This document shows positions 30,834 through 64,000 of a DNA stretch of 64,000 bases, in pieces. The notes beneath the pieces were generated by a model. That model saw only the letters and a list, made by a program, of their open reading frames with translations, was not told the origin of the DNA and made no database searches. The stretch comes from Sorghum bicolor (lineage: Eukaryota > Streptophyta > Magnoliopsida > Poales > Poaceae). The position numbers were made by a program, and so were the translations under genes. Every line of letters begins with the position of its first letter. Position 1 is the first letter of the stretch. The stretch lies in NCBI RefSeq assembly GCF_000003195.3, contig NC_012873.2, positions 22,346,347 to 22,410,346 on the forward strand, in the 5' to 3' direction.

Positions 30834-30845
30834 TGGTATCAGAGC
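30834..30845 (+). promoter_or_regulatory. Element D primer-binding site (initiator tRNA-Met)
   Basis: TGGTATCAGAGC, 2 bases after the LTR end, is the canonical site complementary to the initiator tRNA-Met 3' end. Confidence 0.97.
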
Positions 30846-31203
30846 ATTCGTTGCTAAGATGACTGCTGAACCTTTTGAAAAACTTCAAAAATTCGTTTGG
30901 AACTAATATTATGAACCTGCCTATTTTGAGTCCAAGTGCTTAGTCCTAATCTACCCCTGTCTATAGGCTTTCTGAGAATTTTTGAAGTGGTATGGAGGAG
31001 CAACCTAAAGTATTGCCCTATGTTGTAAAAATTTAAGGTACTGTTGATACGAATTGTTAGTAGGAATCGTAAGTTCGTGCATGCATCATGATGTATTAGC
31101 TGGTTAAGTTCCTTCCTCCTTGTTGGGTTGGGTGAATAGAATCAATCCTATTCTTGCTAACCTTTAAGGTCTCTCTTACTAATCTAAACTTACCCTCTAC
31201 AGG

Positions 31204-31908
31204 ATGGCTCGTCAGAAGCAGACCCCGCGTAAGCGGACCGGTCCAAAAGGAGTTCCCCGACATCAGCTAGCTCCACGCAGTGATCAAGCCAGTAGTAGCC
31301 GTTCACCGCCTCAGCAGGAGGTGGACAGGTTGTCCGCCGAATTGACTGAGGTGATGAGAGAGAGAATGTACAATATTATGGAGATTGGCAAACTTAAAGT
31401 TCAACTGGCCAAAGAAAAACAAGCTATGGAAAACTGTGAAGCTATGTTGTCTCGGATGGTGGAGGAGCGGAATGCAGCCATTGCCCGAGAGGAAGAAGCT
31501 AGGAGCACCCATAGGCATGAGCTAACTAGGATGAACGCAAAGTTGGGCAAGGCAAGGTATCTTAAGGATTTGTATGTGAAGATGGCGGCCACGGTCACCG
31601 CACAACGGGATGTCGCGTGGCAACGAGAGGACCAGCTCCAGCTGGAGAAACTGGAGCTGGCACATCACTTAGATACAGTCAATGACCTGGCTATGCAATA
31701 TCGTGATATTGCATTTGATCTGTATCATCAACTCCACCCACCTCCCGGCGAAGGAGAAATGGATACGGATGGCGAGTTGGCAGACGATGGAGAACCTGAC
31801 CCAGGCCTCAATGATGAAGAGGAGTCTGACCCCGATAACAACAACCCAGGCGGTAATCAGGATGATGGCGATGACGACCTGGGCTACAGCTCTGGCCACA
31901 CCGATTAG
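31204..31908 (+). CDS. Histone H3-tail-like coiled-coil acidic protein (element D ORF1)
   Basis: An intact 234-codon frame between PBS and gag. After Met removal the N-terminus ARQKQTPRKRTGPKG tracks the H3 tail [15 protein letters not shown], and PRHQLAPR tracks PRKQLATK; the K4, K9 and K14 equivalents are kept. Residues ~40-180 are a long charged coiled coil. Residues ~185-234 are strongly acidic (DEEESDPDNNN, DDGDDD). The ATG directly follows an acceptor-like CTCTACAG|G, so a spliced mRNA could start here. Element E has a longer homologue. It is not a standard retroelement protein. Its function is unknown; chromatin mimicry or histone/nucleosome contact is inference. Confidence 0.85.
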   Translation: MARQKQTPRKRTGPKGVPRHQLAPRSDQASSSRSPPQQEVDRLSAELTEVMRERMYNIMEIGKLKVQLAKEKQAMENCEAMLSRMVEERNAAIAREEEARSTHRHELTRMNAKLGKARYLKDLYVKMAATVTAQRDVAWQREDQLQLEKLELAHHLDTVNDLAMQYRDIAFDLYHQLHPPPGEGEMDTDGELADDGEPDPGLNDEEESDPDNNNPGGNQDDGDDDLGYSSGHTD

Positions 31909-32123
31909 TTCGGTGAAACCGAGGGCAACGTCGTTGTAGGGGTCTTAGCTTGCCGTAGTGGGGTTCGGGTTTGTAATATAAGTTCTCTTTTGGTTTGAAA
32001 AGTTGTACTTGCTTACTCTTGGTGTGTATCTAACTAATGTTTAATAAGTGAATGAAAGAATGTAAGATATGTTCTGTGTTATGAATTTTACGTGGTAACA
32101 GGTATCTACGATTCTTGTAACAG

Positions 32124-35100
32124 ATGCCGATGCGTACTCGCGGATCTGATGGAGCTGGGACATCCCAGGGAGGGGATGATATCCCCAACCCTCCACCTGC
32201 TCCACCTTCTTTGGCTGACGCCATTGCTGTTTTGTTAAGTGCCACTACTGACAATGCTCGCTTGCTGCGCGAGCTAGCACAGCGTCAACCACACCCTGCT
32301 CCAAACTTCAGGGCACCGCGCAACAGGGACGGAGAGGCTCGGTATGTGGACTTTACCGAGACCAGGCCCCCGGTGTTCACTAAGGCCGATGAGCCTTTAG
32401 AAGCGGATGACTGGCTCCGAACCATGGAGCATAAGTTCAGTTTGATTCAATGTTCAGAAACTCAGAAACCCTTATTTGCAGCTCAGCAGCTTCGGGGAGC
32501 TGCAGGTGCCTGGTGGGAGAACTTCTTAGCTATTCAAGCTCCCGGACACCAAGTCACTTGGACCGAATTTAGGGACGCGTTCCGCGCCCACTACATCCCC
32601 GAAGGGCTCATGGCCATGAAGGCCGAAGAGTTTCTCTCCTTGCAGCAAGGCGATAAAAGTGTTATGGAATACGTGGCAAGGTTTAATCATCTCTCTCAAT
32701 ATGCCACGGATCATGTGAACACTGACAGAAAGAGGAAAGCCTGTTTCATGCGTGGTCTAAATACTAAACTTCAGACCATGATGACCACTTGCCAAAATGC
32801 TACTTTCTATGAGGCGGTAAATATTGCTATCGCCTCAGAGGAAAAGAATAGGAAACATAAGGAAGCCAAGAAGAAGGCTGCTTCCTCTTCTTTCTCTGGT
32901 CGCGGTCAAAAGCGCCAGAGGATCATTTATCATCCACAGGGCCACGGACGTTTCCAAACGCCGTCACCTTATCGTGGTCCTTTCTCCCCTCCACAGTACA
33001 GACCCGGGCAGCAGGTATATTCTCGACCTACTGCCATCGCTTTTGCACCACGCCAGCCGAACGCCCCGGGTGTTCGCCCTACTGCTCCGCCCAGCCACAA
33101 TTACCCTTGCTTCAATTGTGGTAAACCTGGGCATTTCTCTAAAGAGTGCCCTTTTCCCCGCCAAACCAACCCTACCTTTCCAAGGCCACCTATGGGCCAA
33201 CCCCAGCCGGGTCAGTTCAGAACTGGGGTTCAAAAAGGGCAACAGGTACAGAAAGGTAGACCGGTAAAGAAGACAGGGCAAGTCTTCCATACTGAAGTGG
33301 AGACAATTCCAGAGGGTGAACCAGTGATGATGGGTACGTTTCCTGTTGCGAAGCATCCTGCTTTAATGCTCTTTGATTCTGGTGCATCTCATACATTCAT
33401 CAATCGCACCTTTGTGTTAAAGCATGGCATACCCATTGGGGAAACACAAGATCATTTTTATATACAGTCGCCAGGAGGACGGCTGATGTCTAAAGAAATG
33501 GTTCACCAAGTACCCATCGAATTTGGTGGGCACAATTTTCCTACTAGCATGATTGTTCTTAAGGACCAAGAAATTGATGTCATCTTAGGCATGAACTGGA
33601 TGGCGCAACGAGGGGTTGTGCTAGACACTTTGCACCGAACCATTAAAATCCCATTGCCCAATGAGAATTCTTATTTGCTAATCCAATTAGTTACTCCCAA
33701 ACGGACAATTGGGCAAGTTCATGCCGCAAATGTGTCTGAAGTCAAAGATATTCCGGTAGTTCGAGATTTTCTGGATGTATTTCCTGAAGACTTACCAGGT
33801 CTGCCTCCGGACCGGGATGTACAATTCAGTATAGAATTGAAACCAGGAACGGCCCCAATATCTCGAAGGGCCTACAGAATGGCACCGAAAGAGCTGGCCG
33901 AATTAAAAACCCAATTACAAGAGTTGTTGCAGAAGGGTTTTATTCAGCCCAGTTCTTCTCCATGGGGTTGCCCAGCCTTGTTTGTGAAAAAGAAAGATCA
34001 GACATTAAGGCTGTGTGTCGACTATCGTCCTCTAAATGAGGTAACGATTAAGAACAAGTACCCATTGCCCCGCATTGACTTATTGTTTGACCAGCTAGCT
34101 GGGGCCAAAGTGTTCTCAAAAATTGATTTGAGATCAGGGTACCACCAAATTAAAATTAGGCCGGAAGATGTGCCCAAGACCGCTTTCACAACCCGTTACG
34201 GGCTGTATGAATACTTGGTGATGTCTTTTGGGTTGACTAACGCACCGGCCCATTTCATGTACCTGATGAACTCTGTCTTCATGCCAGAACTAGATAAATT
34301 TGTTGTTGTCTTTATTGACGACATTTTGATTTACTCCAAGACTAAGAGAGAACATGCTGAACACTAAAGAGTCGTGCTGACCCGTCTCAGGGAGCATCAA
34401 CTATATGCCAAGTTCAGCAAATGTGAGTTCTGGTTGGACAAAGTTCATTTCCTGGGTCATGTATTATCAGCGGAAGGAGTCGCTGTAGACCCAGGCAAGG
34501 TAGAAGATGTGTTGAATTGGAAACCCCCGACTACGGTACATGAGGTCCGTAGTTTTCTGGGCATGGCGGGATATTACCGTCGTTTCATCCCGGACTTTTC
34601 CAGAGTCGCCAAACCAATCACAACCTTGCTCAAAAGTCAAACAAAATTTGTTTGGTCACCCCAATGTGAGCAAGCCTTTCAGACTCTGAAAAGGTTGTTG
34701 ACAACTGCACCTGTCTTAGCCCAGCCAGATATTGAAAAACCCTTTGATGTATATTGTGACGCATCAGGGATCGGGTTAGGCTGTGTGCTGATGCAGGAGG
34801 GTCGTGTAATTGCATATGCTTCCAGACAACTCAAACCCCATGAAGAGAATTACCCGACCCATGACCTTGAACTAGCCGCCGTGGTACATGCATTAAAGAT
34901 CTGGCGTCGTTATTTGTTGGGGAACACATGTCATTTATATACAGATCACAAAAGCTTGAAGTATATCTTTACTCAAGCTGAGCTTAATATGCGCCAGCGA
35001 AGGTGGCTAGAACTAATTAAAGATTACGACCTTGAGGTGCATTATCACCCTGGCAAGGCAAATATAGTAGCGGATGCCCTCAGTCGTAAGGCTCACTGTA

Positions 35101-36656
35101 ATTGCTTAACAGTGACGCCTAGGGATATAACTTTGTGCCAAGAGCTAGAGAAATTGGGAATAGAAATGATTTCCCAAGGAAGCCTTTCCAATTTAAAGAT
35201 TGATTTCAATCTCGAGGCTCAAATCATAAAGGCACAAAAAGAAAACAAAGGCATGAGACATCTTAAAGAGAAGATTTCTAATAGAGCACCCACAGACTTT
35301 AAGGTGGATGATGCGGGAGTAATCTGGTTCAAGAACCGGTTAGTGGTTCCAAAGGTACCTGAGCTACGTCAGCAAATCCTGGATGAAGCTCATACCACGA
35401 GGTATTCCATTCATCCGGGAAGCAATAAGATGTATCAGGACCTGAAGCAAAGGTTTTGGTGGACAAAAATGAAGATAGAAATAGCTCGCTATGTGGCCCA
35501 ATGTGACACCTGTCGAAAGGTCAAAGCCATTCATCTCAAATCCGCTGGGGAGTTGCAACCTTTGCCTATCCCCGCATGGAAATGGGACGACATAAGTATG
35601 GATTTCATAGTAGGATTGCCCAAGACGGCCAAGGGCTTTGATTCCATTTGGGTCATAGTAGATCGTCTCACCAAAACAGCACATTTTCTGCCAGTAAAGC
35701 TATTGTATCCTGCCTCCACCTATGCTAAGATTTATTTCGACCGTATCCTAAGTCTGCATGGGGTGCCAAAGACAATAGTGTCAGATAGAGGCACACAATA
35801 TGTCTCCCAATTCTGGAAATGTTTACATGAGTCCCTGGGCACTAAGCTTTTATACAGCACAGCCTACCACCCTCAAACCGGTGGGCAAACTGAAAGGGTG
35901 AATCAAACCCTAGAAGATCTATTAAGATCTTGTGCCCTGAATTTTCCAAATAAGTGGGATGACTGCTTGCCTCTAGCAGAATTTTCCTACAATAATAGCT
36001 ATCAAGAGAGTATCAAAATGGCTCCCTTTGAGGCACTGTATGGTCGCCGATGTCGAACTCCGTTACACTGGTCGGAACCTGGAGAAAGATGGTTCTTCGG
36101 AGTTGACTTAGTGAAAGAGACTGAGAACAAAGTGAAACAAATCCAAAATAACTTGAAAGTTGCTCAGTCCCGACAGAAAAGTTACGCTGATAAAAGACAT
36201 CGACCATTAAAGTTCGCCAAAGGTGATCATGTGTATTTGAAAGTATCCCCAATGAAAGGAGTAAATCGTTTTGGTGTTAAAGGCAAGTTAGCGCCTCGTT
36301 ACATTGGTCCATTTCCAATTATCGACCGATGTGGGCAGGTCGCTTACCGCCTTAAACTGCCCGAACGATTATCCGGGGTACATAATGTGTTCCATGTGTC
36401 TCAACTGAAAAAGTGTCTTCGGGTACCAGATCGAGTTCAAGATATTGAAGATGTAAAGCTTGAACCAGATCTAACTTATTCGGAATACCCTGTCCGAGTA
36501 CTGGATCAAAAAGCTAGAGTTACTCGAAGGACAACCACCAAATGGTATAAGGTACAATGGAGCCAGCACTCTGAAGAAGAAGCCACCTGGGAATCTGAAG
36601 ATTACTTGCTAGAGAATTTTCCTGAATTCCATGCTTCCCTTCAGGACAGCATATGA
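32124..36656 (+). pseudogene. Element D Gag-Pol with chromodomain (one nonsense codon)
   Basis: Single frame from ATG 32124, preceded by TTGTAACAG|. Gag capsid is at residues ~70-250; zinc knuckle [14 protein letters not shown] near residue 329; protease [10 protein letters not shown] near 416; RT ~590-740 with FIDDIL near 730. TAA at 34365-34367 then breaks the frame. From 34368 on, same frame: end of RT, RNase H ([24 protein letters not shown]), H2C2 zinc finger (HPGSNKMYQ ... CDTCRK), integrase triad ([22 protein letters not shown]) and a C-terminal chromodomain ([18 protein letters not shown]). The chromodomain and Met PBS place it in Tekay/Del. Confidence 0.95.
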
Positions 36657-36863
36657 TAACCAGAGAGTGTACTCTAGTGAAGGAAAAGAGTCACCAAAGC
36701 CATGTACTTAATGTACATATATGCTTATAATGAAGTATTTTTTTCCCCAACTCCTTGCCTTATGGAAAAGTTGAAGATGAAAGAGTTTTGACAAATTTCC
36801 TTTTCCATTACTTACCCTAAGGTTTTAAATCTCGGGGACGAGATTTCTTTAAGGGGGAAGGGC
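36657..36863 (+). mobile_element. Element D 3' UTR and PPT
   Basis: Short non-coding tail ending in the PPT ctttaagggggaagggc (36847-36863), directly before the LTR. Confidence 0.85.
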
Positions 36864-39800
36864 TGTAACATCCCTGATGTTACGGTTACTAAAAACGGAT
36901 CATGTCATCATAAGCATTGCAAAGCATATTTGTTAAAGCACATTAGTATGCATCAACTTAAAATAAGTTTACCTTGATTGCTTGAGCTTAGGGAAGTAGA
37001 GTGTGCTTCTGTAGTGTGTTGTTGCTTGTGTGGTTGCTAAAACCCTAGGGTGGAAGTTTTCCGAAAAGCTAAGGGGGGAAAACCCTGATTTCTGGATCCT
37101 AGATTTGTCCCCTTTTGCATAAGTCAAAAACTAAGCAAAATTTGAGGTTGAGTTCAAAAGCAAAGTTGTAGCTCTTGGCAAGATGTACAACTTTGGTGTT
37201 TTGAGTTTTTGAAGTTTCAATACAAAATTCAAAGTAATTTTGAAAATACAGATTTCCAGAAAGTGTCCCCTTTTCTAACTTAAACCCCCAATTCAAAATC
37301 CATTTGGAATTTTGAAAAGTGGTCAACATGAAAGTTGTAGAGCACAAAAAGTTGAGCAACTTTCATGTTGGGAGTTTTTCAAGCTGTTATGCAAAATCAA
37401 AAGTAATTTTTGGAAATCCTGATTTGCCCCAATTCAAAATTTTGAATTTCTTTTGAATTGAGTGTGATTTTCAAACTGTCTGGCAAAATTAACTTATTTC
37501 CAGTGAGAATCAGCTTGGGACACCTAAATATGATTTGTAGACTACAAAATTTGGAACAACTTTTGTTTTGACAAAAATTTGACTCCAGTTCAAATTTCGG
37601 TTGAATTTCGCAAAGTTCTGAAAAGAGGGGATAGGGGTCTGCTACAGTGATCCGATAGGGATCACCGGCTCCCTGCCCAGCGCAGCTGCCGCGCGAGCAG
37701 CGCCGCGCGCATGCGTGAGTGCACGCAGCTGCTTGCTGCCAGGGTCGCCAGGCGACGTGGATGCCTTAGGCTTGCCTTCCCCTCCACTTGAGCACCGACG
37801 TGGACGACACCGTCCGTTTTCACTGTCCACGGCCGGAGAAACTCGACCTCCCTCTCTCTGAAATCCACCGCACTCCGTTCCTTTCGAGCCAAATTGAGCA
37901 CGCTGCCGTTTTCGCCACCTCCTTGCGGACCCAGAGCACCCCCGAGCTCACGCCCTAACCCCCTCAAACGACAGAACTTCTCCTTCTTCTCCAAGTCCGG
38001 CCGGCGTCGCCGCCGTGGAACCCTTCACGTGAGCACGCTGCTCCAGTCGGTACCACGCCTTGAAGGCGGTCGTTCCGAATTCTTCTTGTTTCCCCGATAC
38101 TCATGCGCTCGCTATTTCTCACTGGACGCCAACAGAATCACCGGAGCAACCTCGCCGGAGCCGGAGCATCCGCCCGACCGCACGGCCACCGTCGCCAAGC
38201 TTCTCTACCGCTTCTCCCGCCGTGGTGATGTGAGCATCATGATCCCCACTTCTTCCCGGACCTCCCGGACCTACTGGTTCACGCTCTACCGAACCTTCGT
38301 GCCCGGTCCTCGGCGACCGACGCGGCCGTCCGCCATTTGCGTGGTTGAGGTGGAAAGAGAGCGAGAGAGCGTCCGTGAGTGGTAGCTTTGGAGTCGCAGG
38401 GTTGGCACGGTGCTGGTGCGCGCGCGCGTGGGGGCCGCGGAACCCGCTAACGGTCGCCGGAGCGGCGGCAGCACCGCCGTGAGCGAGGGAGGCGAAGCTG
38501 ACAGGCGGGACCCGCCTGTCAGCGTCCCGCAACGTGAGGAGAGGGGGCAGCACGCGCCGTCCGCGCAGGGGAGCGCCCCCGGGCCGATTTGGGCCGTGTC
38601 CAAGCAGGCCGTCTGCGCAGCGCGGTTGTGGGCCGACCTGCGGGCCAAGATCCAGGCCGCCCACTGCGCAGAGATCCTTTTCTTTTTCTTTTTATGCAAT
38701 TTTTGTTTGTTGTTTGAAATTATATGATAAATGGTGTGCTAATCCAAAAATGATGAAAGTTTTTGTATAGGTTCCATAAAGTGGGTAGAACACAAGAAAA
38801 ATAGTGGATTCTATTTTTCTGGTAGTTTACATGTCTATAAAAATTGGCTCTTTAATTAGTGAATAAAACTTCTAGGAATTTTAGTAATTTATTAGGAGGT
38901 CCAAAAATCACCAAAAATTGTGGAGAGCCTCTGAGTGGTATTCCCTGGCTCCACACAAATTTTGGTGGCATTTGGATAATGTTTGATTAAAATATTAATA
39001 AACCCTTATTTAGCACTTAAATAATAATTCCAAAATAATTAAATGGTGATTATTTAGATCCTCATAATTAGGGTTGAGTGATTTTGGATTGTGTGATAAC
39101 CTAAGGTCATTAACCCTAATGACCTTTGGCATTTGATTATTGTTTAGCCATAATGCTTAATTACTGTCATTAGTAATTAATTAAGAGTTAATTAAGGTAA
39201 TTAGGATTAATAATTAACTAATTTAAGATAAGTGTGAATTAAATAAAGTTTTAGTTTACAGATGCAATCTCTTGGGTAAAATCATTAAGTTATTAAACAA
39301 CTTTATTTAGCGATAATTCTGTATTGCATCAAGAAGGCGAGTTGTACTCGATTTGGTCCTTCTTGCATATTTGTCATACGCATATCATAAGCATTCATCA
39401 TTTTGCGTATAGTGTCCGTGACCGAAGGAGCGCCCGTTGAACCGAACCCCGAGGTCGGTGCTCCGTTCGAGTAAGTCGAATCCGAGACTTGGGAAGTCTC
39501 CGAGGGTCCCTCTCTGCCCTGCAACCAAGGCAAGCCCCGGATGCATTAACCCCTCCTTGGATGTTTTAAATCTTTTGTCACTTATGAATTGAAAATGCTG
39601 CATTAGATAGTTGAGAATTGGGTTCACCTACTTGCTGCATTTACTACCTTGATATCTATATCCTGTCCTTGACACCTGTTTTATTTTAAAACTGCGTAGC
39701 GATGCTTAGCCCTGCTACTAGATAGGTTTTTAAACAAGAAGTTTGAAGGGTTGTTGTGGGATACACTTACGATCAATGATGTTTCAATTTGAGACCGGTC

Positions 39801-41141
39801 GGTGGACTTGCTCTAAGAATGGAGTCTTAAAGTAGTGTCTCCGACTGTGTTGATTAAGGACCGTTCCGTTGATGGCCTGCTGGGTTGAGAATTTATAGTA
39901 CTAGCCACTTGCCTTCGGTAAGCCTGGACTTGTGATCCCTCGACGCGAACAGCTACTCGCGCACTGGGAGTGGAAAGATGGCGAGAGTAGTGTGTACCCA
40001 CCTTACGGATCTGAGATGACCGGAAAACATCTAGATCGGCTGTAGGATGGTGGAGTACTGTGCTCTCGGGTGCCGCGAACCTGGTCAAATTTGGGGAGAG
40101 CTTGCTTTGGGTTGACATATGCAAGATTTGGTTCTACATATGTCGGGTGGTTAGGAACTCCAGCTGGATTGCTAAGCGATTCGAATCGTCGTTGCTCCCC
40201 GATTGGGAGACTCAATTCCTTCGACCCTCATCGTAGTTAAATATGCAACTAAGTGATAAAATGAGAAAAGGGGAAAATGTCTCATGAGGTTCGGATCCCA
40301 ATTCCCGGACTCATAGCGACATGAAGCTATGGCCATCGATACATAATACTTTATGATAGGACTAGGAACTCACGGATTCGTCTGTGGAGTACAACTAGTT
40401 AAACTATCCTCGAACTCCTCGGCCTCTGCGAGGGAGGAATTCGGGGGTAAAACTTGAAAATAAGGATGCACTACTAGTAAGCTTTTTACGCAAAACACTT
40501 TGGCTCCTTGCTCAGCCACCCCTTGTCTACCCTAAGCCTGCATCCCTAAGTTCTCCTCTTTTCCCATCGGGTAAGTCTTGTTGAGTACTCCCGTACTCAG
40601 GGTTTCAATACCCCTGTTGCAGGTGAAGCTCAGGAGCCGACTTGCTTCGGACCCTGTTGTGTGACCGTCGTCGAGGTTGACGACGAAGAAGAGTGAGCGT
40701 GACCCATGGGCAGGGTATGTAAATTTGTACTCTCTGTACTAAAGTTTAATTTGCTCCGCTGGACCAGGCTTGTAATAACACTCTACTATTTGGAAGAACT
40801 CCTTTTATAAATTAAGTTATGTAATACTTCCGCTGTTTTACTCTGAAATATTATTTTAGTCTGGTGTCGTTTGAGTTACAGCTTTATCTTCGCAACGAAT
40901 GATCCTGGTGTTAAGGTGGCCACTTGCTATTCTATAAGGGCGAGAAGAAACAGTTCTCGTTGTTTGACCATTACCAATGGTCAGGACGAGACAGCTTGGT
41001 ACGCCACAGGTAGCAGTGGAATGAGCGCCCAGCAATGCTCATCGGACTTCTAAAGTGGGAGAACTCCCGGCATCACCGTCAGAAGTCCTTAGGACAAAGG
41101 CAGGTGCCGGTGGGCCCAAACACTTAGGAGGTTCTGCCACA
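36864..41141 (+). repeat. Element D 3' LTR
   Basis: 4278 bp, ~99.4% like 26553-30831. One base change breaks the terminal palindrome (CCCTGATG against CCCGGATG). It is followed by TSD ATGAG 41142-41146. Confidence 0.96.
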
Positions 41142-51558: not shown

Positions 51559-52215
51559 TCAATACTGCTCAGAAGGTCAACACTTTGTCGTGATAGAATG
51601 TTGGTACAACTTGCCGTGCAGAACTGTACCAATCTACAAAGTTTCGTGGTGCATGGCATACATTGCTGGAAAGCACTTGGAGTCTAGTTTCACACCCAAG
51701 AAACGGTTCATCAATCGGACTTTCCAATAAAGAGTTATGTTCAGTTTATTAGAAATTGATCTGGAGGCCAACAATCACGCGAAACCACTTCGGGACTCCA
51801 TTCTAGGGGACCTTTCACATTGAATTTCTTTAGAAATTCCATTTCATTTTCATACCCATCTAGCAGGGTTGTTGCTAGTGTAAATATTATCTACCTCTAA
51901 GCTATTAGAAACATTTGATCATTTGATCAACTATATGATATTGCAGCCATACTGCTTAGTGCCTTACTCAACCTTTGTTCTTCCTTGTTCTTCTTAGACT
52001 TGTGAAGTGAATCCTCTCGGTTCCCCTACTTCGTGCTCTACGGCTTCCATTCGGCTGCGCCGTATTTTGTGGATTAGTTTTGGATTTTGGTTCTGCGGTC
52101 GTTCAGAGATCGAGTCGAAGTCTTCGCAGTTTCAGTGCCTCTCTGCCCGTCGCTTGGTCGCATCCAACCTTTGCCAGGTATAAAACTAGTTATCCACTGT
52201 TCGTAGCAAGTTATC

Positions 52216-55200
52216 TGTAACAGAACCGACCAAATTATAAGAGATTAAGCCTAACAGTGACCATTTGCATAGTCAAACCATCACGCTTAAGCACATATAA
52301 TCCCGGTAGTCCGTGAAATCTCGAAGGATTTCAAACCACATATCGCACAACAGCCAAGATCGTAATAAGTTTAGCGGTCGCCATTCACAAATACATCCAG
52401 ATTACAACATTCATATAATACATCGGAGTTCTTAAAGTTATTATAAACCAAGTTCTTCAAGTAGCGAAAGCTTCATAGTTCGAAAATACAACACACACGC
52501 TTAGTTTGATACAGTGCCATAGTTCGGTCATTCCCACAAAAGCAAAACAAGAGACGGAGTGACCATCGCCCTTGGTCTAGTCATCACCCATGGCTGGGTA
52601 CAGACAGAGGATGCAATAACCATAATACATTTGACCATCTGCAAAACAACATGGGAGTAGAACCCTGAGTACGAGAAGGTACTCAGCTAGACTTACCCGT
52701 CATAAACTTAAAATAAAGACTCATCAAGGATCATGAAGGCTCTCTAGTGGGGTAGCTGACAACCATTTTGCAAAGCCGTAGGATTTTACTATCATAACCT
52801 ACATAAGTCTTTCTTCTTTTAATTTGCTCAAGTTGAAAGTATCATTACCTATCATCTAGGTTTGCACCTGCACTCTTACAAGCAAGTATAAGGCTATGAT
52901 AGTACCTCATCATAGCATTTCTTAAAACCATTCATCAACATAACCCAAGCGTTCCATAGTCCTTACTACGAGGACGAAGCTCATGTCAAGTGCTCACTAT
53001 CCAGGAGCGATGGCGATTCGAATCGATTTCTAACCAGCTGGCGAGAAATTCCCCACACAAACCACACTCACTGATAAAGTGAGCTACAGATCACCGTATT
53101 GACCCGAGGACCATTCCGGCGACCGAGGTATCCAAGGTATACCAAGGTTGCGCGCCGCGCCCTCGTCGTTCTCCTCAACCATCACCAATACAGCGCATGG
53201 CGGCTCGATTCCCGGCCCGGATAGTGTTCAGGCTTCGCGGTCGGAACGACTTATCCTTCCAGCTAAGTGTGGGGCATGCGTTCAACATGACAAGAGGGCC
53301 GTCAACGATCGGTCCTTAATCGACGCAGGCAGGGGCACTATGGTCAACCCACCATAAGACCCTGCCCGGTCTCCAGTTACATTCCACACTTGGTTATTCT
53401 TTTCCCCAAGCAACCAATGCTTAATCAAGCAGGTATCCACCTATTTCTCGCAGGTGACAGGAAATCACCCAACTTCTACCGGACTAAGCAAGCTAAGCAT
53501 AGACTCCGTGCCTATCTACATAGGACAAGGTAGGTGAACGAGTAGGGATAACAAGGAGTACATATGCATCAACGGTATCAATCAAATCCTATCACTTAGA
53601 TGCAATATAGTAGAGCAATTATAGCGCATCATATAAGTTACCGATAATAGGGAGACTTAGAATGCTCCGGGGCTTGCCTTTCTCAAACGTGCAGGGTCGG
53701 TGATCCGGACACTCCTGCAGCTCCTCTCCGGGTTCCTGTGCTTCCGGAGGTTCCTGCTCCTGAATCTCCTCGGGTTCCTCGGGTCCCACTTCGTTCTCCT
53801 GCGAGCCTGTATGATGCATGTGTGCTTATGAGTGGAGTGCGAGATGCCCGAGTGGATGCTTGTATGAGAAAGTACCAAAGGAGTCATGACATGATGCATA
53901 TGTAATGTACTCGGTCATGCTCATTACAAGGTAGTCAACATCATCCAAGAACAAACAATTGAATCAAACATCTATTGCATTTTCTTCTACAATTATTTTT
54001 CAAATGCAACCAGCAACCCACATTATGCTTCAAAGATACACCAAACCCAAATTATTCTATTCAACCTATATACACAACAATTCATAATTTTCTTTATTCA
54101 TTTCTAGGCCCATTAAAAATCACATGCAATTTTGTTCATCAATAAATACCACAAAAATTACAGGAGACTACCAACTAAGCATAAAGTCTATTGTAAATTT
54201 TTTTCATAATTTTTGGATACTTATTTTGAGCCACAAAAATCACAAGATTAATTCATAGGGTAAGTATAATCACTCTACTGTGATATAAGTGTCAAACAAT
54301 AGATTTCATATTTTTACAATTTGTCTAATATCATAAGAAACACCCACAAAATTTTCCAGATTTATTGCATGATCCGATTAATTATTAAAAATCATAAATC
54401 ACTGCCATGCAAGCATTTAAATTACCATAAATTCATTTATACACCAAATAATATGTAGCAATATTTTCCGAGTGAGTAAACATACATGCAGAGCCAACAA
54501 ATCAAGTTTCACATATTTCTGAACCATATTTTTATTTACTATGCATTTTCCAAGTTTAGCAAAAACATGGATTAAATATACTCATTCAGAAAAGTTACTC
54601 AAACATGACATGCAATTACATCAAACTGTAGATCTGGAAATATAGAGCACACCAAAATTTATTTCATCCAATTTGGAGCTGTAGAACTCAAGATATAAAT
54701 TTTACAAGTTTTGAATCAATTTCTGGAAATCATTTATTCAAGAAAACCGACGAAAAAGGCTACGCGCACCTAGATCTACACCCACCGGGGTCCCCCTGCG
54801 ACTGACAGTGGGTCCCCGACCCCACCGGTCAGCGAGACCGAGAGGGAGCTCACCTCCGATGAGCAGATCTCGTCAGCGGTGAGGTCTCCGGCTACGGGGT
54901 AAGGACCAACGTGCTCCCCGCAGCGAGGCGCACCCAATGGTACCCTCGGATTGGCCGGAGGATGACCGGAACACCTCCGACGAGCATGCATGGCAGCACG
55001 GCGGCGCTGCTCGCCATGGCCAGGCCGCTCCGGCGCGGTAGAGCGTGCGCAAACGCCTCTCCGAGCTTCCTCACCACCCTACCGACCTAGCGCACCCAAG
55101 AACCAGCGAAAAGAGGCACAGAAACACAAGATCTGTCGCGGCGGAGTACTCCGGCGAGCTCGGGGTAACTCCGGCGAGCGATTCACGGCGCTCGACGGAC

Positions 55201-56095
55201 TCTCACCTCGGTAGAACGCGCGCACAAGCTTACCCTAACGATGACGAAGGCGCTGGTGCTCTCGGCGGTGAGCTTGAGGCTCTGGTGCGGTCGGCGGCGA
55301 GCGGCGGGGCTTTCTCCGGCAATGGCGCGCTGAGGAGCTGCTGCTGCTGCGCGGTGCGAGCGGAGGGAGGAAGGAGAAGGAGGGCGCGGGGACAGAACGG
55401 AGGAAAGGGCCTGGGAGCCCGAGCCGGCGTCCCGACTAGGGGGGGTTGGAGGCCGGCCGCGGCGCGTCCAACGCCGGCGTACGGCCGCCACGTGGCTGGT
55501 GCCGGGTGGAGCGAGGCGCGTCCGCGCGCGGGGGAGAGAGGGGGAGAGGGGGAGCAGGCCGGGCCGCTCGCTGGGCCGAAAGGGAAGCGGGGTTGGCCCA
55601 GCAGCGCCTGCCCCTTTCTTTTTTTTGAATTTCTTTTCTCCAAATTCTTTCTAAATTCATTTGGACCAATTTAAAATCATTTTCACCTCTTGCTCCCAAA
55701 AAAAAAGTTGTTCCAAAACAAAAACTCTACAACTTTGCTTTAATAAGCAAGACCAAATTCCAAATAGAATTTGAATTACAAATTAAAACTTAGTTCTAGG
55801 TTTTTAAATAAATTCAATTTGGAAATCTTGTTTAAATTCCATTTCTCAAATTCCATAGCTCCAGAATTTACACAAAAATACCCTAAATTCTTCTAACTCA
55901 TAGATCAACCTAGTTTGAATATTTCACATTTTTAGAAGCAAGCATCATATTTTTAGCATAATTAAAACACATGAAATAAAGCACATAAAATCATGTTTTG
56001 GGATGAATGACATGCCGATGATGCTATGCTTGATGAGAATGCTTATGCATTGCTTTGATAAGGCTAAGTGCAAGCTTAACACCTAGGGTGTTACA
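52216..56095 (-). repeat. Element E 3' LTR
   Basis: 3880 bp; on minus starts TGTAACACCC and ends TTCTGTTACA. The terminus is palindromic (TAACACC CTA GGTGTTA, ~56079-56095). AT-rich flanks surround a CpG-rich centre. Confidence 0.93.
54770..55620. other. CpG-rich block inside the element E LTR
   Basis: ~0.85 kb GC-rich block in an AT-rich LTR, with frames up to 209 codons on both strands but no domain. It sits at a position comparable with the block in element D LTRs and contains a related inverted repeat (ctgacagtgggtcc...ggtcag). It is possibly the LTR promoter/leader region. Confidence 0.55.
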
Positions 56096-56116
56096 GCCCT
56101 TCCCCCCTTAGGGAAA
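56096..56116 (-). promoter_or_regulatory. Element E polypurine tract
   Basis: On minus, TTTCCCTAAGGGGGGAAGGGC directly precedes the 3' LTR, nearly the same as the D tract (aagggggaagggc). Confidence 0.85.
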
Positions 56117-58794
56117 TCTCGTCCCGAGATTTTGGGTTACTAACCATTTCTTATAAAATTTTGGATAAACTGTTTTTAAGTAATCCTCTGTTTCCCAGGT
56201 GGCATCCCTATCGTCATGATGACTCCACACCACCTTGTATGTTCGAACAACTCTATTTCGGGTTACTCGTTCCTTGGTATCCACAATTCCCACTGGCTGC
56301 TCTTTATATTCCAAGTCTGCTTTTATCTTGATCCCTCGAGGTTCAATTCTTTGCTCAGGTACCTTCAAACATTTCCGCAGTTGCGACACATGGAAGACTG
56401 GAAAGATCGAGCTCAACTCTTTAGGTAACTGAATCTTGTAGGCCACTGGGCCTTTCCTCTCTAGTATTTGATACGGTCCCACATATCTGGGTGCAAGCTT
56501 GCTTCGAACTCGGAAACGCTGAACCTTCTTCATTGGCGTAACCTTGAGGTACACATAGTCACCTACTTTGAATTCAAGTGGCCTTCTTCTCTTATCCGCA
56601 TAACTCTTTTGTCGAGATTGCACTGCGCGCATATGCTGCTGTATGATTTGTACCTTCTTCTCTGCCTCATTCACGAAGTCGATACCATAGTATCTTCTCT
56701 CACCAGGTTCAACCCAGTTCAACGGAGTTCTACATCTCCGACCATACAAAGCTTCGAACGGGGCCATCTTGATGCTCTCTTGATAACTGTTATTGTAGGA
56801 GAATTCAGCCAGAGGTAACCATGATTCCCATGATCCTTTGGATGATAGCACACAGGCTCTCAACATATCTTCGAATACTTGGTTTAGCCTCTCCGTTTGA
56901 CCTGAAGTCTGGGGATGGTACGCCGTGCTTCTTATCAGACTGGTTCCCAAATTCTTATGCATTCGCTCCCAGAAGTGAGCGGTGAACTGTGGTCCTCTAT
57001 CTGATATGATGGTCTTGGGAATACCATGCAACTTAACAATCTCAGCCATATATATATATCGGCATACTCGGGAGGTCTGTATGTGTTCTTGACTGGAATG
57101 AAATGAGCCGACTTGGTTAATCGATCTATGATCACCCAAATCGAGTCATTCCCCTTCCTCGTGGTCGGTAATCCTGTGATAAAGTCCATACTGACCTCTT
57201 CCCATTTCCATTCTGGAACTGATAACGGTTGCAACAAACCTGCAGGTTTCATATGGATGGCCTTAACTCTGCAACACGTGTCGCAACGGGCTACATAAGC
57301 GGCTATCTCTTTCTTCATCTTGGTCCACCAAAAGTGGGGTCTCAGGTCCTGATACATTTTACTGCTGCCAGGATGAATAGAAAGTTTTGAGAGATGGGCT
57401 TCATCCATGATACGATTCTTCAATTCCCGATCCTTCGGGACTACTAACCGATGTTGAAACCACAGTACCCCTTTTTCATCAACTCGAAATTGAGTCTTTG
57501 GGTCATCTTTGATCTTCTCCTTGATGTGGAAAATACCCTTGTCTGTTTTCTGTCCTTCAATGACTTGACTCTCGAGTGAACAACTGAGTTGTATGTGACA
57601 TAAGACCTCAGGATGCATGAGATTTAACCCATCTTCAAACAACGGTTGAACCACTTGATAGTGCGGTTTACGACTCAACGCATCTGCTACTACATTAGCC
57701 TTGCCCGGATGATAGTGAACTTCCAAATCATAGTCCTTGATTAGCTCTAACCACCGTCGTTGCCTCATATTTAGCTCGGACTGAGTGAAGATGTACTTCA
57801 AACTCTTATGATCGGTATAAATGTGACACTTATTTCCCAGCAGATAATGTCTCCAAATCTTCAAAGCGTGCACTACTGCTGCTAACTCGAGGTCGTGCGT
57901 TGGGTAGTTGACTTCGTGCTTTCTCAACTGTCGGGAAGCATAAGCTATCACCCTGCCATCTTGCATCAACACACACCCCAGGCCACTCTTCGATGCGTCA
58001 CAAAACACATCAAAAGGCTTTTCTATATTGGGCTGTGCCAGAACGGGAGCAGTGGTTAGCAACTTTCGCAAGGTGCGGAAGGCTAACTCACACCCTTCCG
58101 TCCAGACAAACTTATGATCTTTTTGTAGAAAACTTGTTATTGGCTTGGCCATCTTAGAGAAGTCAGGTATGAATCGGTGATAATACCCGGCCAGACCAAG
58201 AAAACTTCTAACTTCCGAGACAGAAGTTGGTGCCTTCCAGTCCATAACCTCTTGCACTTTTGACGGATCCATAGCAATCCCTTCTTCAGACAGAATGTGC
58301 CCTAGGAAAGGAACTTTCTTTAACCAGAACTCACACTTGCTGAACTTGGCATATAACTGATGCTCTCGTAATCGTGTTAGCACGATTCTCAGATGCTCGG
58401 CGTGATCTTGCTCATTTTCTCAATAAACCAGGATATCATCGATAAACACCACAACAAACTTATCCAATTCTGGCATAAAGACTGAATTCATCAGATACAT
58501 AAAGTATGCAGGAGCATTTGTCAACCCAAAGGACATGACAAGATACTCATACAACCCATATTTGGTGGAAAAAGCAGTCTTCGGGATATCTTGCGGACGA
58601 ATCTTGATTTGGTGATACCCAGACCTCAACTCTATCTTAGAAAACACTCTTGCCTTGGACAACTGATCAAACAGGATATCAATCCTTGGTAAAGGATACT
58701 TATTCTTGATTGTCACTGCATTGAGTGGACGATAGTCCACGCACATGCGCAACGATTGATCCTTCTTTTTCACAAACAACGCTGGCAACCCCAT
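56108..58794 (-). pseudogene. Element E RT, RNase H, integrase, chromodomain (broken)
   Basis: RT begins after a frameshift near 58780-58795 and shows [19 protein letters not shown] and VFIDDILVY; a TGA at 58420-58422 interrupts it. The next frame (58383 on) carries RNase H ([26 protein letters not shown]), the H2C2 finger (HPGSSKMYQ ... CDTCCR) and MDFITGLP. A frameshift at the (TA)n run near 57048-57059 then leads to SDRGPQF and QTERLNQ, and a chromodomain (TYKVVWSHHDDRDATWETED) at ~56120-56230. It is three breaks from a complete polyprotein. Confidence 0.92.
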
Positions 58795-60587
58795 TCCGAC
58801 AAGCTTGGCCGGATGAACCCTTTATCTAGTAACTCTTTTAGTTGATTCTTCAACTCGGCGAGTTCGTTTGGTGGCATCCGGTACGGCCTTCTAGATATTG
58901 GTGCTGTACCTGGTATCAACTCGATTGCAAACTCTACTTCCCTATCTGGGGGAAGTCCTGGTAATTCCTCAGGGAAAACATCAGGGAACTCACAGACTAC
59001 TGGGATCTGTGGTAATGGAACCACGTGCGTAGCACAAGAGATGCTAGCAAAGTCAAGACGACGGGGCAAAGGTACTTGAAAAGAGCTGCTGCCCTGTGGT
59101 TCTCTGAGAGATAACATTCTCTTCCCAGTATCTATGACAGCATCCCATTCTCTCATCCAGTTCATGCCCATGATGACATCCAAAACTAACCCAGGCATGA
59201 CCACTAGATTCACTCGGAATACTCGGCCACTTATATCCAGGGTTGCCCCTCGAACCACTCTATTGGTCAACACATCTGCCCCTGCTGAGCTGATGCAGTA
59301 GCCATACTCCAGATCTGTAACTGGTTGACTATGCTTTTGTGCAAATGCTTGGCTCATGAATGAATGCGATGATCCAGAATCAAACAAAACAACCGCAAGA
59401 TGTTGGTTGACAGAGAACATACCAGCCGTTACCGGTTCTCCTTCCGGGATCCCCTCGATCGAGGTATGGTGCATACGAGTTGGATAGGTTGGCTGCTGCC
59501 TCTTGGGGTAGGGACATTCCTTAGCGAAGTGTCCCATCTTGTGGCAGTTATAGCACGGACCCTTGGGCGCATTGTTGATGGTAGGTGCTGCGGCTTGAAT
59601 TGCCTTCGGCTTGGCAGGGGCTATCGCCACCTTGTACGGCTTCTGCTGTGTTGAATGCCCGGTGTTCCTTCTCTGCGGCGGTCGGAACCTAGCACCTGGG
59701 GCAGGAGGACGATACTGCTGTCGCCCTGCCACTGGTGCCCTGGACTGAGATGATCCGGCTTCAAAAGCCCTCTTTCGTGACTTGGATGCACTGTAGTAGT
59801 TGTTGTTGTTCTCCTGGGTGAGACAGTCACTGATGTAAGCATTTAAGGTAGCTCTGGCTCCTGTACCCATGGTCTTCAGCATCCTTGGATTCAAGCCCCT
59901 CTGGAAACTAGCAATCTTCTTGGCCTCCGTGTTTACAAACTCAGGGGCATAGCGAGCGAGATTATTGAAAGCATGTAGATACTCCTTCACAGATTTCGTC
60001 CCCTGGGACAGCCTCATGAACTCCCCAACCTTCATTTCAACCACACCCAGAGGAATGTAATTTCCTCGGAAAGCTGTGGTGAAACGGTTCCAGGTAATTG
60101 GGGTCCCCTCTGGGTAGGTGGTACGGTGATGGGACCACCAAATCCCAGCGGGTCCTTGCAACTGATGTGCCGCATACTCAGCCTTATGTTCTTCTGTCAT
60201 ACGGAGAAGACGAAACTTCTGCTCCATGGTGTTGATCCACTCGTCTACTTCGAGCGGTTCCAAAGCCTCCTTGAAGATTGGTGGCTTGGTATCCATGAAT
60301 TCCTTGAACGAACTGTACTGGTTGACTTCCCGGCCGCCCTGGTTATCCCCACGACGGGTGTTGTCAGCTATGTTGCGCAGAGCCTCTTCCATGTTGCGTT
60401 GCATCTATTCCATGTTGCGTTGGCTTCCCAGAAACTGCGCGAAAAACACGTCCGCAGTGTACGGAGGAGGCGGTGGTGGTGGCGGTGTTGGTGCTCTGTC
60501 CTCATTCCGTTGAGCCCCACCTCCGGATGTACCTGCTCCAAGGCCCGGGTTGCTGTTACCCCGGCCACGTGTTTGTACCATCTGCAT
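58770..60587 (-). pseudogene. Element E Gag-protease (one nonsense codon)
   Basis: Starts at ATG ~60587 (MQMVQTRGRGNSN), directly after the acceptor-like GTATGCAG. TAG 60405-60407 lies inside a short QRNME repeat, where CAG is the likely original. Then Gag core ([33 protein letters not shown]), zinc knuckle [14 protein letters not shown] (~59540), protease [10 protein letters not shown] (~59380) and the RT-leading [15 protein letters not shown]. The frame fails near 58790, where RT continues in another frame. Confidence 0.92.
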
Positions 60588-60904
60588 ACGTCAATGATAA
60601 GCAATCATTAGGAGTTGCCATCAACGGTAGAAATGTGTAGAATCATGCCGCACTAAATTTACTGAGAGAATAAATTCGCTCAATAAACAGAGGCACAACA
60701 ATTCATCATCTACGCACAGCATCACTAACAGATTGCTTAACGTTCACGCAACAAGGTTCGCGTACATCCAACTTGCCAGCATACATACACTGGACTTTCA
60801 ACATTAACTCATAAAGTTTTACATAGCCCAGATCCAAAAGTACACGACATGCCATGCAACATACAACAACACAAGAAGAAGGACTAGCTCTAGAGCCCTA
60901 GCAT

Positions 60905-61948
60905 CTACTCGCTATGGTCACTGTCCATGCCGGAGCCATCCTCATCCTCATCTCCACTAGCAGCTGCTCCTATCTCGGGATCCGCGTCCATCTCGTCCTC
61001 AGAGTCTAGCTCAGCTGCTCCAGGCAGGTGATGAGGGTGGAGCTGGTTATGCAGCTGGTGGATCTCCTCATGCAAGTTCTCATTGTACTCCTCAGCATTA
61101 GCTAGCTGCTGCTCTAGCTCTAGCTGTCGGGCCCTCAAAGTGTCCTCCTCGTGCCAGGCTTCATTCCTCTGTCCAAGCACATGGACTAGCATGCGCTCGC
61201 AGTTCCTGTGAGCAGTGGCCACCCTATCCCTCTGCTCTCGCAATGCAAGCAGGTCCTGACTCAGCTCGCTGTTCTTCTAGACTGCCTGGTCTCTCTCTCT
61301 GGTCACACGGGCCAACTCTGCCTGCAGCCTCTCAACCTCAGAGTCGAACTCACGCTGCAACTGACGCTTCTCATCTTGGACGGTGAGAAGAGACCCGGAC
61401 AAGCGGCCCAAATAACTCTCCAGGCCTCCATAGGTCTTCATCAACGCGTACATGGCACTCATAGCTGCACCGTCACTGTGCTGGTCCTCATCCGCACTCC
61501 TCTCTAGAGCATTCACCTCGGACTGATCCCACACCGAAGTGTAGGGGTCACCCCGGGGAAACACCCCAGCGAAGGCGTGGGCCAGCTCCTGTGGAAACCT
61601 CTCCATGAGGTCCCTCAGAACTGCGAAAGCTGCCCTGCTGGAACCGTGGAAAGGCATGACACCTCGGGACTCGTACACCCAGCCACCCCAAGCAGGGTCT
61701 CCTCCACTGGTAGGGACAACTGCCTAGATCCCCACCAGGGTCTCGTCACCAAGCGGCTCCTTATCCCAATAGTAGCGAGGCTCCCTTCCTTCGGGATACC
61801 CCATCGAACTGAGCACCCTCCATAGCAAAGTGGGCATCCCAAACTCCTCCAGGAACTTGCTCTTATGTCGCGAGCTCCTAGCTGCCAACGGATGGCGAGG
61901 GGCCAGCCCACCAGTGGACTTGCGAGCGGTGAGCCTAGTGCGTGCCAT
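60905..61948 (-). pseudogene. Histone H3-tail-like coiled-coil acidic protein (element E ORF1)
   Basis: 347 codons in one frame between 5' LTR and gag, with two TAG stops (61724-61726, 61277-61279), both fitting former CAG. The N-terminus, ARTRLTARKSTGGLAPR after Met removal, matches the H3 tail at 14 of the first 17 positions, including eight in a row (TARKSTGG); K9/S10/T11 equivalents are kept, K4, K14 and K27 are not. A middle globular-looking region (~30-140: FGMPTLLWRVLSSMGYPEG, FPQELAHAFAGVFPRGDP) is followed by a coiled coil (~170-290) and an acidic tail ending DSDHSE. The ATG follows TTTGCAGCAG. D has a shorter homologue lacking the middle region. Confidence 0.85.
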
Positions 61949-62756
61949 CTGCTGCAAATGGAATACCGTGGGTAAGAGCGACGATTACCTTTAATTATTT
62001 TATTTAGAATTGGGACAGATTAAATTAAGGGGGAAAGTAAGCAATGATATGACATGAACATAATGCATGCACGAACTTACGATCTCACAAACTTAGAAAC
62101 AAAGGTTAACACTAAGCGGTATATGCGGTGGCACACAACGTTCTCTCATAACGTAACTAGCGTTCTAAGCGAGAACGTGGTTGGGGTACCTGCAGAAAAC
62201 TCATTTCAGCCCACCCACAGTATGCTAATGCAAAACAAAATTTAAAACTATGCACTTCACATACACTGACACCCGTCCATGCATGTGATGTGTTGCTACC
62301 CATATCATCGCCCTAATGACGGCATCGCCTCTCAGGACGGAATTCCCAACATGCGGTACTGTTTCCAAGACACACCAAAAACATGTGTGCATGACACAGT
62401 GCCTAAAAACACTCCCCTAGACTGGCAGTGTATCCGATCATGCTCTCACAGCTCCCACTTACCGTGACATAGAGGAAAAAATGGATTCATACATTACCAC
62501 TCAAGTGAATGGCACTCATACTATTGCACGCCGTATGAGCGACGAAATAAAAATATGATGCATTAACCCCCAAGTCAGTACTTAACTAGCCACCTTAGAG
62601 TCCTTAACTGGGCATAAAGGATATGACCATGGCACACTAGATAGTTTTCCAAAACTTAGTTTAACACCTTGATCATTATTAATTAATAAAATCCTTTATT
62701 AGACCGGTTTAGATTTTGTTTAGAACGTACTTATGAACAGTAACTCGCTAAACCTT
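61949..62756 (-). mobile_element. Element E leader
   Basis: Non-coding leader between PBS and the H3-tail-like ORF. It ends (minus) in ATTTGCAGCAG before the ATG, a possible splice acceptor. I see no other feature; the short plus-strand frames are not genes. Confidence 0.6.
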
Positions 62757-62768
62757 GCTCCGATGCCA
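62757..62768 (-). promoter_or_regulatory. Element E primer-binding site (variant)
   Basis: On minus TGGCATCGGAGC, 2 bases inside the 5' LTR: the place of the initiator-Met PBS TGGTATCAGAGC but with two changes. Confidence 0.8.
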
Positions 62769-62770
62769 GC

Positions 62771-64000
62771 TGTAACAGAACCGACCAAATTATAAGAGAT
62801 TAAGCCTAACATTGACCATTTGCATAGTCAAACCATCACGCTTAAGCCCATATAATCCCGGTAGTCCGTGAAATCTCGAAGGATTTCAAACCACATATCG
62901 CACAACAGCCAAGATCGTAATAAGTTTAGCGGTCGCCATTCACAAATACATCCAGATTACAACATTCATATAATACATCGGAGTTCTTAAAGTTATTACA
63001 AACCAAGTTCTTCAAGTAGCGGAAGCTTCATAGTTCGAAAATACAACACACACGCTTAGTCTGATACAGTGCCATAGTTCGGTCATTCCCACAAAAGCAA
63101 AAGAAGAGACGGAGTGACCATCGCCCTTGGTCTAGTCATCACCCATGGCTGGGTACAGACAGAGGATGCAATAACCATAATACATTTGACCATCTGCAAA
63201 ACAACATGGGAGTAGAACCCTGAGTACGAGAAGGTACTCAGCTAGACTTACCCGTCATAAACTTAAAATAAAGACTCATCAAGGATCATGAAGGCTATCT
63301 AGTGGGGTAGCTGACAACCATTTTGCAAAGCCGCAGGATTTTACTATCATAACCTACATAAGTCTTTCTTCTTTTAATTTGCTCAAGTTGAAAGTATCAT
63401 TACCTATCATCTAGGTTTGCACCTGCACTATTACAAGCAAGTATAAGGCTATGATAGTACCTCATCATAGCATTTCTTAAAACCATTCATCAACATAAGC
63501 CAAGTGCTCCATAGTCCTTACTACGAGGACGAAGCTCATGTCAAGTGCTCACTATCCAGGAGCGATGGCAATTCGAATCGATTTCTAACCAGCTGGCGAG
63601 GTATTCCCCACACAAACCACACTCACTGATCAAGTGAGCTACAGATCACCGTATTACACTATCCAGGACCAATTCGCGGGTTCGGCAGGCACCGCTAGTA
63701 CCCTAGGACCGTTCCGGCGACCGAGGTATCCAAGGTATACCAAGGTTGCGCGCCGCGCCCTCGTCGTTCTCCTCAACCATCACCAATACAGCGCATGGCG
63801 GCTCGATTCCCGGCCCGGATAGTGTTCAGGCTTCGCGGTCGGAACGACTTATCCTTCCAGCTAAGTGTGGGGCATGCGTTCAACATGACAAGAGGGCCGT
63901 CAACGATAGGTCCTTAATCGACGCAGGCTGGGGAACTATGGTCAACCCACCATAAGACCCTGCCCGGTCTCCAGTTACATTCCACACTTATTTATTCTTT
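62771..64000 (-). repeat. Element E 5' LTR (partial, cut by window end)
   Basis: Matches 52216 onward with ~18 differences over 1.2 kb. It contains a ~43-base segment near 63655-63705 that the left LTR lacks (left counterpart ~53100-53115). Confidence 0.93.

What the first reader, a model, noticed from the sequence alone, without database searches (positions are those of the whole stretch)
61862..61948. Retrotransposon protein beginning with a copy of the histone H3 tail (element E)
Seen: after the initiator Met, ORF1 of element E reads ARTRLTARKSTGGLAPR. The plant/animal H3 tail reads ARTKQTARKSTGGKAPR: 14 of 17 identical, with TARKSTGG uninterrupted. K9, S10, T3 and T11 equivalents are kept; K4 is Arg, K14 is Leu. 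The N-terminal Ala would be exposed after Met removal, exactly as in H3. Known: H3 tails are substrates and ligands of methyltransferases, kinases and chromodomains, and Tekay integrases carry a chromodomain. Inference: the element makes an H3 mimic that may occupy H3K9 methylation machinery, bind its own integrase chromodomain, or tether particles to chromatin. I know of no description of this, but could not search.
Basis: partly seen in the sequence, partly recalled or inferred. Interest (0 to 1): 0.93.

Follow-up and report, generated by a model that had tools for sequence, protein, structure and literature searches.

The report
Histone-tail-like start of retrotransposon protein
Some plant jumping genes carry an extra protein that begins with a piece resembling the tail of histone H3, and where that piece is present it is the best-kept part of the protein, which suggests they use it to deal with the host's chromatin machinery.

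Summary
The minus-strand frame at 61948 begins MARTRLTARKSTGGLAPR, 14 of 17 identical to H3 in register. These are the only two of 2,288 ATGs in the window with six or more matches to the H3 start. Of 195 proteins held, 92 have such a tail; 4 start inside it and 99 start further in, and their upstream DNA could not be read. In 11 tail-bearing representatives the first 25 residues average 78% identity, the rest 31%. The H3 lysine-9 position is Lys in 93 of 93 full N-termini. Element E's own copy has two in-frame stops. Behind the tail come a dsRBD-like fold (E type only), a long helix and an acidic end. Best reading: an H3 tail captured once, kept by selection and displayed on a coiled coil to engage host H3-tail-binding proteins. 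Against pure mimicry, positions 18, 22 and 23 are mostly fixed to non-H3 residues. The ORF kind is known, and partial H3 similarity was, from memory, reported in 2011.

The parts
61874..61948 (-). H3-tail-like N-terminus of element E ORF0 (Met plus 24 residues)
60905..61948 (-). ORF0 frame of element E, 347 codons plus stop, interrupted by in-frame stops at codons 75 and 224
61580..61849 (-). dsRBD-like fold (residues 34-123, carried over by alignment from the P0163 model); E has a stop inside it
61034..61470 (-). coiled-coil region of E ORF0 (approximate, carried over from the P0163 model)
52215..64000 (-). element E: 3' LTR ends at 52215, 5' LTR begins beyond the window end; LTR pieces 98.2% (886 bp) and 96.8% (312 bp) identical; PBS-like site at 62768
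56108..60581 (-). gag-pol of element E (gag start 60581), broken into several frames, chromodomain-like end
31204..31908 (+). intact ORF0 (234 aa) of the second element
31204..31278 (+). its H3-tail-like N-terminus
26553..41141 (+). second element: LTRs 26553-30831 and 36864-41141, 99.4% identical over 4,279 aligned columns; PBS-like site at 30834
32124..36656 (+). gag-pol of the second element: gag, protease, RT, RNase H, integrase, chromodomain; interrupted between 34367 and 34563

Best explanation
ORF0 of these Tekay-type chromoviruses begins with a domain derived from the histone H3 tail, most likely captured once from an H3 gene. It is followed, in the E branch, by a dsRBD-like domain and, in both branches modelled, by a long helix (likely a coiled coil) and an acidic end. 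The tail is disordered and N-terminal as in H3, and a coiled coil would present two or more tails together. I propose that it docks the protein on, or titrates, a host nuclear protein that binds H3 tails (writer, reader, importin or chaperone) in favour of the element, either to soften silencing or to bring element particles to chromatin. Shown: resemblance, conservation among tail-bearing relatives, stronger constraint there than on the rest. Predicted: domain layout. Inferred: capture from H3, oligomer display, host partner, benefit to the element.
For: A profile of 10 ORF0 N-termini with E left out hits H3 at 4.3e-7; 60 of 139 hits shown, all H3, H3 variants or Cse4/CENP-A-H3 entries. Whole P0049 hits nothing but 18 H3 chains at E<=1, though none is significant alone (best 0.09). 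First 25 residues 78% identical between 11 tail-bearing representatives against 31% for the rest, 55 of 55 pairs. K9 position Lys in 93 of 93, T6 in 92, R8 in 84, counted by an anchor that uses only residues 15-21. Between the window's two copies 15 of 25 N-terminal codons keep the amino acid and 10 of these 15 differ synonymously (pS 0.86, pN 0.30). The match is collinear to residue 21, beyond a short ARKS motif, and His18 is found in 59 of 63 distinct N-termini, pointing to one origin. Models: low-confidence tail, then helix 36-177 (P0001) or dsRBD-like 38-117 and helix 161-296 (P0163).
Against: Positions 18, 22 and 23 are mostly fixed to non-H3 residues; Ala1, Ala7 and Ser10 are replaced in whole groups, for example the MPPRTRKT and TPRKR groups. 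No binding, methylation, expression or localisation data exist here. The homolog search needs shared five-residue words, which favours conserved stretches, and the 11 representatives were chosen by me for having the tail. 36 of 57 hits to the intact ORF0, 26 of 43 hits to E and 37 of the 94 further proteins from the alignment search start further in or elsewhere (9 of the 26 at one internal Met); their DNA could not be read, so some may really lack the tail.
Confidence: 0.5

Rival explanations
1. The peptide descends from H3 but is now an element-specific signal, such as a nuclear import signal or a contact to Gag or integrase, with no role in H3 pathways.
For: Fixed non-H3 residues His18 (59 of 63), Pro22 (51 of 63), Arg23 (54 of 63) and loss of Ala1 or Ser10 in groups; 9 of the first 25 residues of the second element's ORF0 are Lys, Arg or His; PMC11728184 predicts nuclear localisation for Poaceae 5' aORF proteins (section read).
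Against: A plain basic signal would not need K9 in 93 of 93, T6 in 92 of 93 and Gly12 in 57 of 63, nor stay recognisable as H3.
Confidence: 0.3
2. A decoy specifically for H3K9 methylation: the tail is methylated by SUVH-type enzymes and occupies H3K9me2 readers.
For: TARKS(T/A)GG in most of the E class and TARKSTG in several GP groups; Lys9 in 93 of 93.
Against: Pro at position 7 in 17 of 63 and non-Ser at position 10 in 17 of 63 N-termini would be expected, from general knowledge of H3K9 enzymes and chromodomains, to harm recognition.
Confidence: 0.15
3. The tail binds the element's own integrase chromodomain.
For: Same element encodes both; the partner of type II chromodomains is unidentified in print (PMC6317226, passages; PMC3350952, passages).
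Against: His at the position I take as the third cage residue in both window elements. Type II chromodomains are found in seed-plant Tekay, Galadriel and Reina clades alike (PMC3350952, passages), and Gao 2012 reports homologs with ORF1 only in dicots and Selaginella, so the chromodomain does not go with ORF0.
Confidence: 0.08
4. ORF0 is a metabolic enzyme, as Gao 2012 proposed from homology models (hydrolase-like, catabolic).
For: PMC3485330, sections 9 and 14 read.
Against: The two models here show a loose tail, a dsRBD-like fold (E type) and a long helix; no Pfam family reaches its cut-off in the 12 ORF0 proteins scanned (5, 7).
Confidence: 0.02
5. Chance or convergence of a basic N-terminus.
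For: Short stretch; basic residues are common at protein starts.
Against: 0 of 20,000 shuffles for each of five N-termini; 2 of 2,288 ATGs; E-values; collinear to residue 21.
Confidence: 0.02

Closest known systems
ORF0 / 5' aORF of grass Tekay elements (RIRE3, RIRE8, Retrosat2, FRetro3, maize Tekay, sorghum Sb7)
   Same: Extra ORF upstream of gag in Tekay chromoviruses with long LTRs, reported in grasses (Gao 2012, PMC3485330, sections 9 and 14 read). A DRBM-like fold is reported for maize Tekay and Sb7 (PMC11728184, section 9 read).
   Different: Those two papers contain no occurrence of 'histone' in the main text. I did not have their protein sequences, so membership rests on layout and fold, not on alignment. 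Sunflower Tekay also has a 5' aORF, reported without amino-acid similarity to the grass ones.
Steinbauerova et al. 2011, Genetica, extra ORFs in plant Ty3/gypsy elements
   Same: Recalled abstract: some Poaceae chromovirus extra ORFs show partial similarity to histone H3.
   Different: Not held in the library, so nothing was read; I do not know whether it discusses the tail, K9 or function.
Viral H3-tail mimics (influenza NS1 ARSK, SARS-CoV-2 ORF8 ARKS)
   Same: A parasite protein carries an H3-tail motif (PMC10208167, passages).
   Different: Those are four-residue motifs; here the match is N-terminal, in register and about 21 residues long. That review has no occurrence of 'plant' or 'transpos'. 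The ORF8 claim is disputed (PMC10833455, search listing only).
Plant dsRBD proteins DRB7.2, DRB4, DCL4
   Different: Foldseek finds no match at E<=0.001; no Pfam dsRBD hit at E<=1 in the seven proteins; the basic motif at the start of the last helix is, by eye, not kept.

Membership tests
Tekay-type chromovirus (LTR retrotransposon) | LTR pair and primer binding site | tested here: met
   LTRs 99.4% (second element) and 98.2/96.8% (E pieces); PBS-like sites at 30834 and 62768; the PBS motif is recalled
Tekay-type chromovirus (LTR retrotransposon) | Gag, protease, RT, RNase H, integrase in Ty3/gypsy order with C-terminal chromodomain | tested here: met
   Second element: PF03732, PF08284, PF00078, PF17917, PF17921, PF24626, PF00385 above cut-off, core integrase PF00665 below its cut-off. 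E: only two of its frames scanned; gag, protease and SH3 above cut-off, PF00385 and PF00665 below
Tekay-type chromovirus (LTR retrotransposon) | Placement in the Tekay clade by RT phylogeny | not tested
Grass ORF0 / 5' aORF family | ORF between primer binding site and gag, same strand | tested here: met
   31204-31908 before gag 32124; 61948-60905 before gag 60581
Grass ORF0 / 5' aORF family | Sequence homology to RIRE3, RIRE8 or Retrosat2 ORF0 | not tested
   their sequences were not at hand
Histone H3 | N-terminal tail sequence | tested here: met
   (alone not significant, best E 0.09)
Histone H3 | Histone fold after the tail | tested here: not met
   no histone Pfam hit in the ORF0 proteins scanned; models show dsRBD-like fold and long helix instead
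Histone mimic (functional class) | Bound or modified by H3-tail enzymes or readers | not testable with these tools
   needs biochemistry
dsRNA-binding domain | alpha-beta-beta-beta-alpha fold | tested here: met
dsRNA-binding domain | dsRNA binding / conserved basic motif on the last helix | tested here: inconclusive
   by eye in alignment the lysines are not kept; no assay
Type I (H3K9me-binding) chromodomain | three aromatic cage residues | tested here: not met
   His aligned with the aromatic that follows the conserved Trp in both elements; residue roles recalled

The most novel reading that the evidence does not exclude
A retrotransposon-borne two-arm silencing antagonist: a coiled-coil protein that offers clustered H3-like tails to occupy the H3-tail machinery and, in the E branch, uses a dsRBD-like domain to interfere with DRB/DCL small-RNA factors, so that one protein meets both the chromatin and the small-RNA side of plant silencing.
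Probability: 0.13. Interest if true: 0.92.

Novelty: new member of a known kind. Interest (0 to 1): 0.6.

Why it matters
The papers seen here give extra ORFs of plant LTR retrotransposons no tested function. If the best-conserved part of this one is an H3-like tail with an invariant lysine at the K9 position, its role becomes directly testable with purified peptides and known H3 enzymes. It would be a histone-tail mimic carried by a transposable element and under lasting selection, not a four-residue viral motif. The set of kept and changed residues (T6, R8, K9, G12, P16, L20, A21 kept; 18, 22, 23 changed) narrows which host partner to look for.

Tried and rejected
Chance: rejected by shuffles, the ATG scan and database searches. 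Capture of a whole H3 gene: no histone domain behind the tail. K9-methyl binding by the element's own chromodomain: disfavoured. Reading K9 conservation: not usable because that script's filter required a lysine there; recounted with an anchor on residues 15-21. DNA of other copies: P0186, alignment A3 and P0153 in viral contigs and P0001 in bacterial and archaeal genomes gave no relatives; P0186 against phages none. The window's own genome was never reached, so copy counts, a tree and dN/dS over many copies are missing. Nucleotide comparison with plant H3 genes was not done for lack of sequence. Foldseek and VIA list no histone for the E-type model, which says nothing against a disordered tail.

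Printed record: searches (open-licence PMC papers only) listed no paper whose title or abstract start describes an H3-tail mimic in a transposable element. Several lists were cut (20 of 69, 20 of 64, 20 of 34, 12 of 31, 8 of 1,245), and only titles and abstract starts were seen except where a reading call is cited.

Full report
Observation. The minus strand from 61948 encodes MARTRLTARKSTGGLAPRHPLAARSS. Against H3 ARTKQTARKSTGGKAPR this is 14 of 17 identical, 16 of 23 over the longer stretch. In a scan of every ATG in both strands of the window, 2 of 2,288 have six or more in-register matches to H3 1-17: this one with 14 and 31204 (+) with 10. Shuffling five ORF0 N-termini 20,000 times each never reached the observed score. 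A search of all PDB chain sequences with E's 26 residues gives histone H3 at E 3.4e-6; 60 of 133 hits were shown and all are named H3, H3 variants or Cse4/CENP-A-H3 entries.

Two elements, not one. The finding names only element E. The window also holds a second element at 26553-41141 with 4.28 kb LTRs 99.4% identical, an intact ORF0 of 234 aa at 31204-31908, and gag-pol from 32124 to 36656 interrupted once. Element E runs from 52215 to beyond 64000; its LTR pieces are 98.2% and 96.8% identical. E's ORF0 frame has stop codons at positions 75 and 224 and its gag-pol is split, so E itself cannot make the full protein.

Family. A search with the intact ORF0 gave 57 relatives, an alignment of 13 gave 374 of which 120 were listed, with only the 7,988 best candidates scored, and E read with X at the stops gave 43. 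Of the 195 proteins held, 92 have the tail, 4 start inside it and 99 start further in or elsewhere. By search: 19 of 57, 17 of 43, and 55 of the 94 new ones from the alignment search have it. Many of these proteins come from short contigs, so a late start may be a gene-calling artefact, but I could not read the DNA and cannot tell. The E-like cluster P0153, 96% identical to E, starts at an internal Met although E's DNA carries the tail in frame just upstream, which shows that such starts do not prove absence.

Tail classes. Of 196 sequences scanned (195 proteins plus E), 86 pass a motif filter and give 63 distinct N-termini after alignment to H3. They form a GG class without insertion, which includes E (17), and a GP class with one extra residue (55, plus 14 with a further residue at the start). 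Because that filter requires a lysine at the K9 position, I recounted with an anchor on H3 residues 15-21 only: 97 anchored, 4 of them out of register or truncated, and Lys at the K9 position in 93 of 93, Thr6 in 92, Arg8 in 84, Ser10 in 73. A profile of 10 N-termini without E hits H3 at 4.3e-7 (60 of 139 shown, all H3, H3 variants or Cse4/CENP-A-H3 entries). Whole P0049 hits only 18 H3 chains at E<=1, the best at 0.09.

Constraint. For 11 representatives that I chose because they have the tail, the first 25 residues share 78% identity on average and the rest 31%; the first 25 are higher in 55 of 55 pairs. Between the window's own two ORF0s, 25 aligned codons keep 15 amino acids, 10 of them through synonymous changes; pS is 0.86 and pN 0.30. 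So the peptide, not the DNA, has been kept. These are few codons, and the homolog search favours conserved words, so the strength should be measured again on whole genomes.

What is not H3-like. Position 18 is His in 59 of 63 and never Lys; 22 is Pro in 51; 23 is Arg in 54; Ala1 is replaced in 14, Ala7 in 18 (Pro in 17), Ser10 in 17. The widely shared His18 supports one origin for the classes. It also shows that the peptide has its own requirements and is not simply held to the H3 sequence.

Mechanism. A disordered H3-like tail on a coiled coil would be presented in two or more copies. I think it most likely engages a host protein that binds H3 tails, to the element's benefit (0.5). A retained import or assembly signal of H3 origin is the main rival (0.3). 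A K9-methylation decoy in the strict sense, a special case of the first, is possible (0.15), but Pro7 and non-Ser10 forms speak against it as the general role. Binding to the element's own chromodomain is unlikely: a His stands where aligned chromodomains have an aromatic cage residue in both elements, and type II chromodomains have no identified partner (PMC6317226, passages; PMC3350952, passages).

Expression hint. In both elements CAG lies within four bases before the ATG of ORF0 and of gag, 4 of 4; the chance of this was not computed. Of 17 relatives read in from upstream, 8 have Gln, compatible with CAG, just before Met, 8 have Asp and 1 has Arg. Alternative splicing of a leader onto ORF0 or gag would explain the first group; there is no RNA evidence.

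Known or new. Extra ORFs at this place in grass Tekay elements are known (PMC3485330, sections 9 and 14 read). The main texts of that paper and of the 2024 paper do not contain the word histone. I recall that Steinbauerova and colleagues (2011) mention partial similarity of some Poaceae chromovirus extra ORFs to histone H3; the paper is not held. The existence of the resemblance is therefore probably known. That the host is a grass is an inference: one E-query hit is named Miscanthus floridulus, a gag-pol-like protein (P0195), and Gao 2012 found ORF0 only in grasses, although sunflower Tekay has an unrelated 5' aORF.

Noticed in passing
26553-41141: Second element of the same kind with intact H3-like ORF0, LTRs 99.4% identical; gag-pol interrupted between 34367 and 34563.
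   Followed up: yes
31190-31206, 32110-32126, 61945-61962, 60579-60600: CAG within four bases before the ATG of ORF0 and gag in both elements, suggesting splice acceptors and alternative use of ORF0 and gag.
   Followed up: partly
61580-61849: dsRBD-like fold in E-type ORF0 with best matches to plant DRB7.2 and DCL4; the basic RNA-binding motif seems lost by eye, which may mean protein contacts instead of RNA binding.
   Followed up: partly
36450-36653 and 56111-56320: Both integrase chromodomains have His where solved chromodomains have an aromatic cage residue.
   Followed up: partly
10233-20640: Other retroelement-like ORFs (for example 12644-14629 minus and 16477-20640 plus) probably belonging to other elements; not analysed.
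   Followed up: no
21346-22287: Run of N in the window sequence; ORFs listed across it are artefacts.
   Followed up: no
P0127-P0152 (proteins): A group of ORF0s, 14 of which begin M(P/S/L)P(R/H)T(R/K)KTARKSTGPIGVPRHQLAPRH, with one residue more before the H3-like stretch, so the exposed N-terminus differs from H3.
   Followed up: partly
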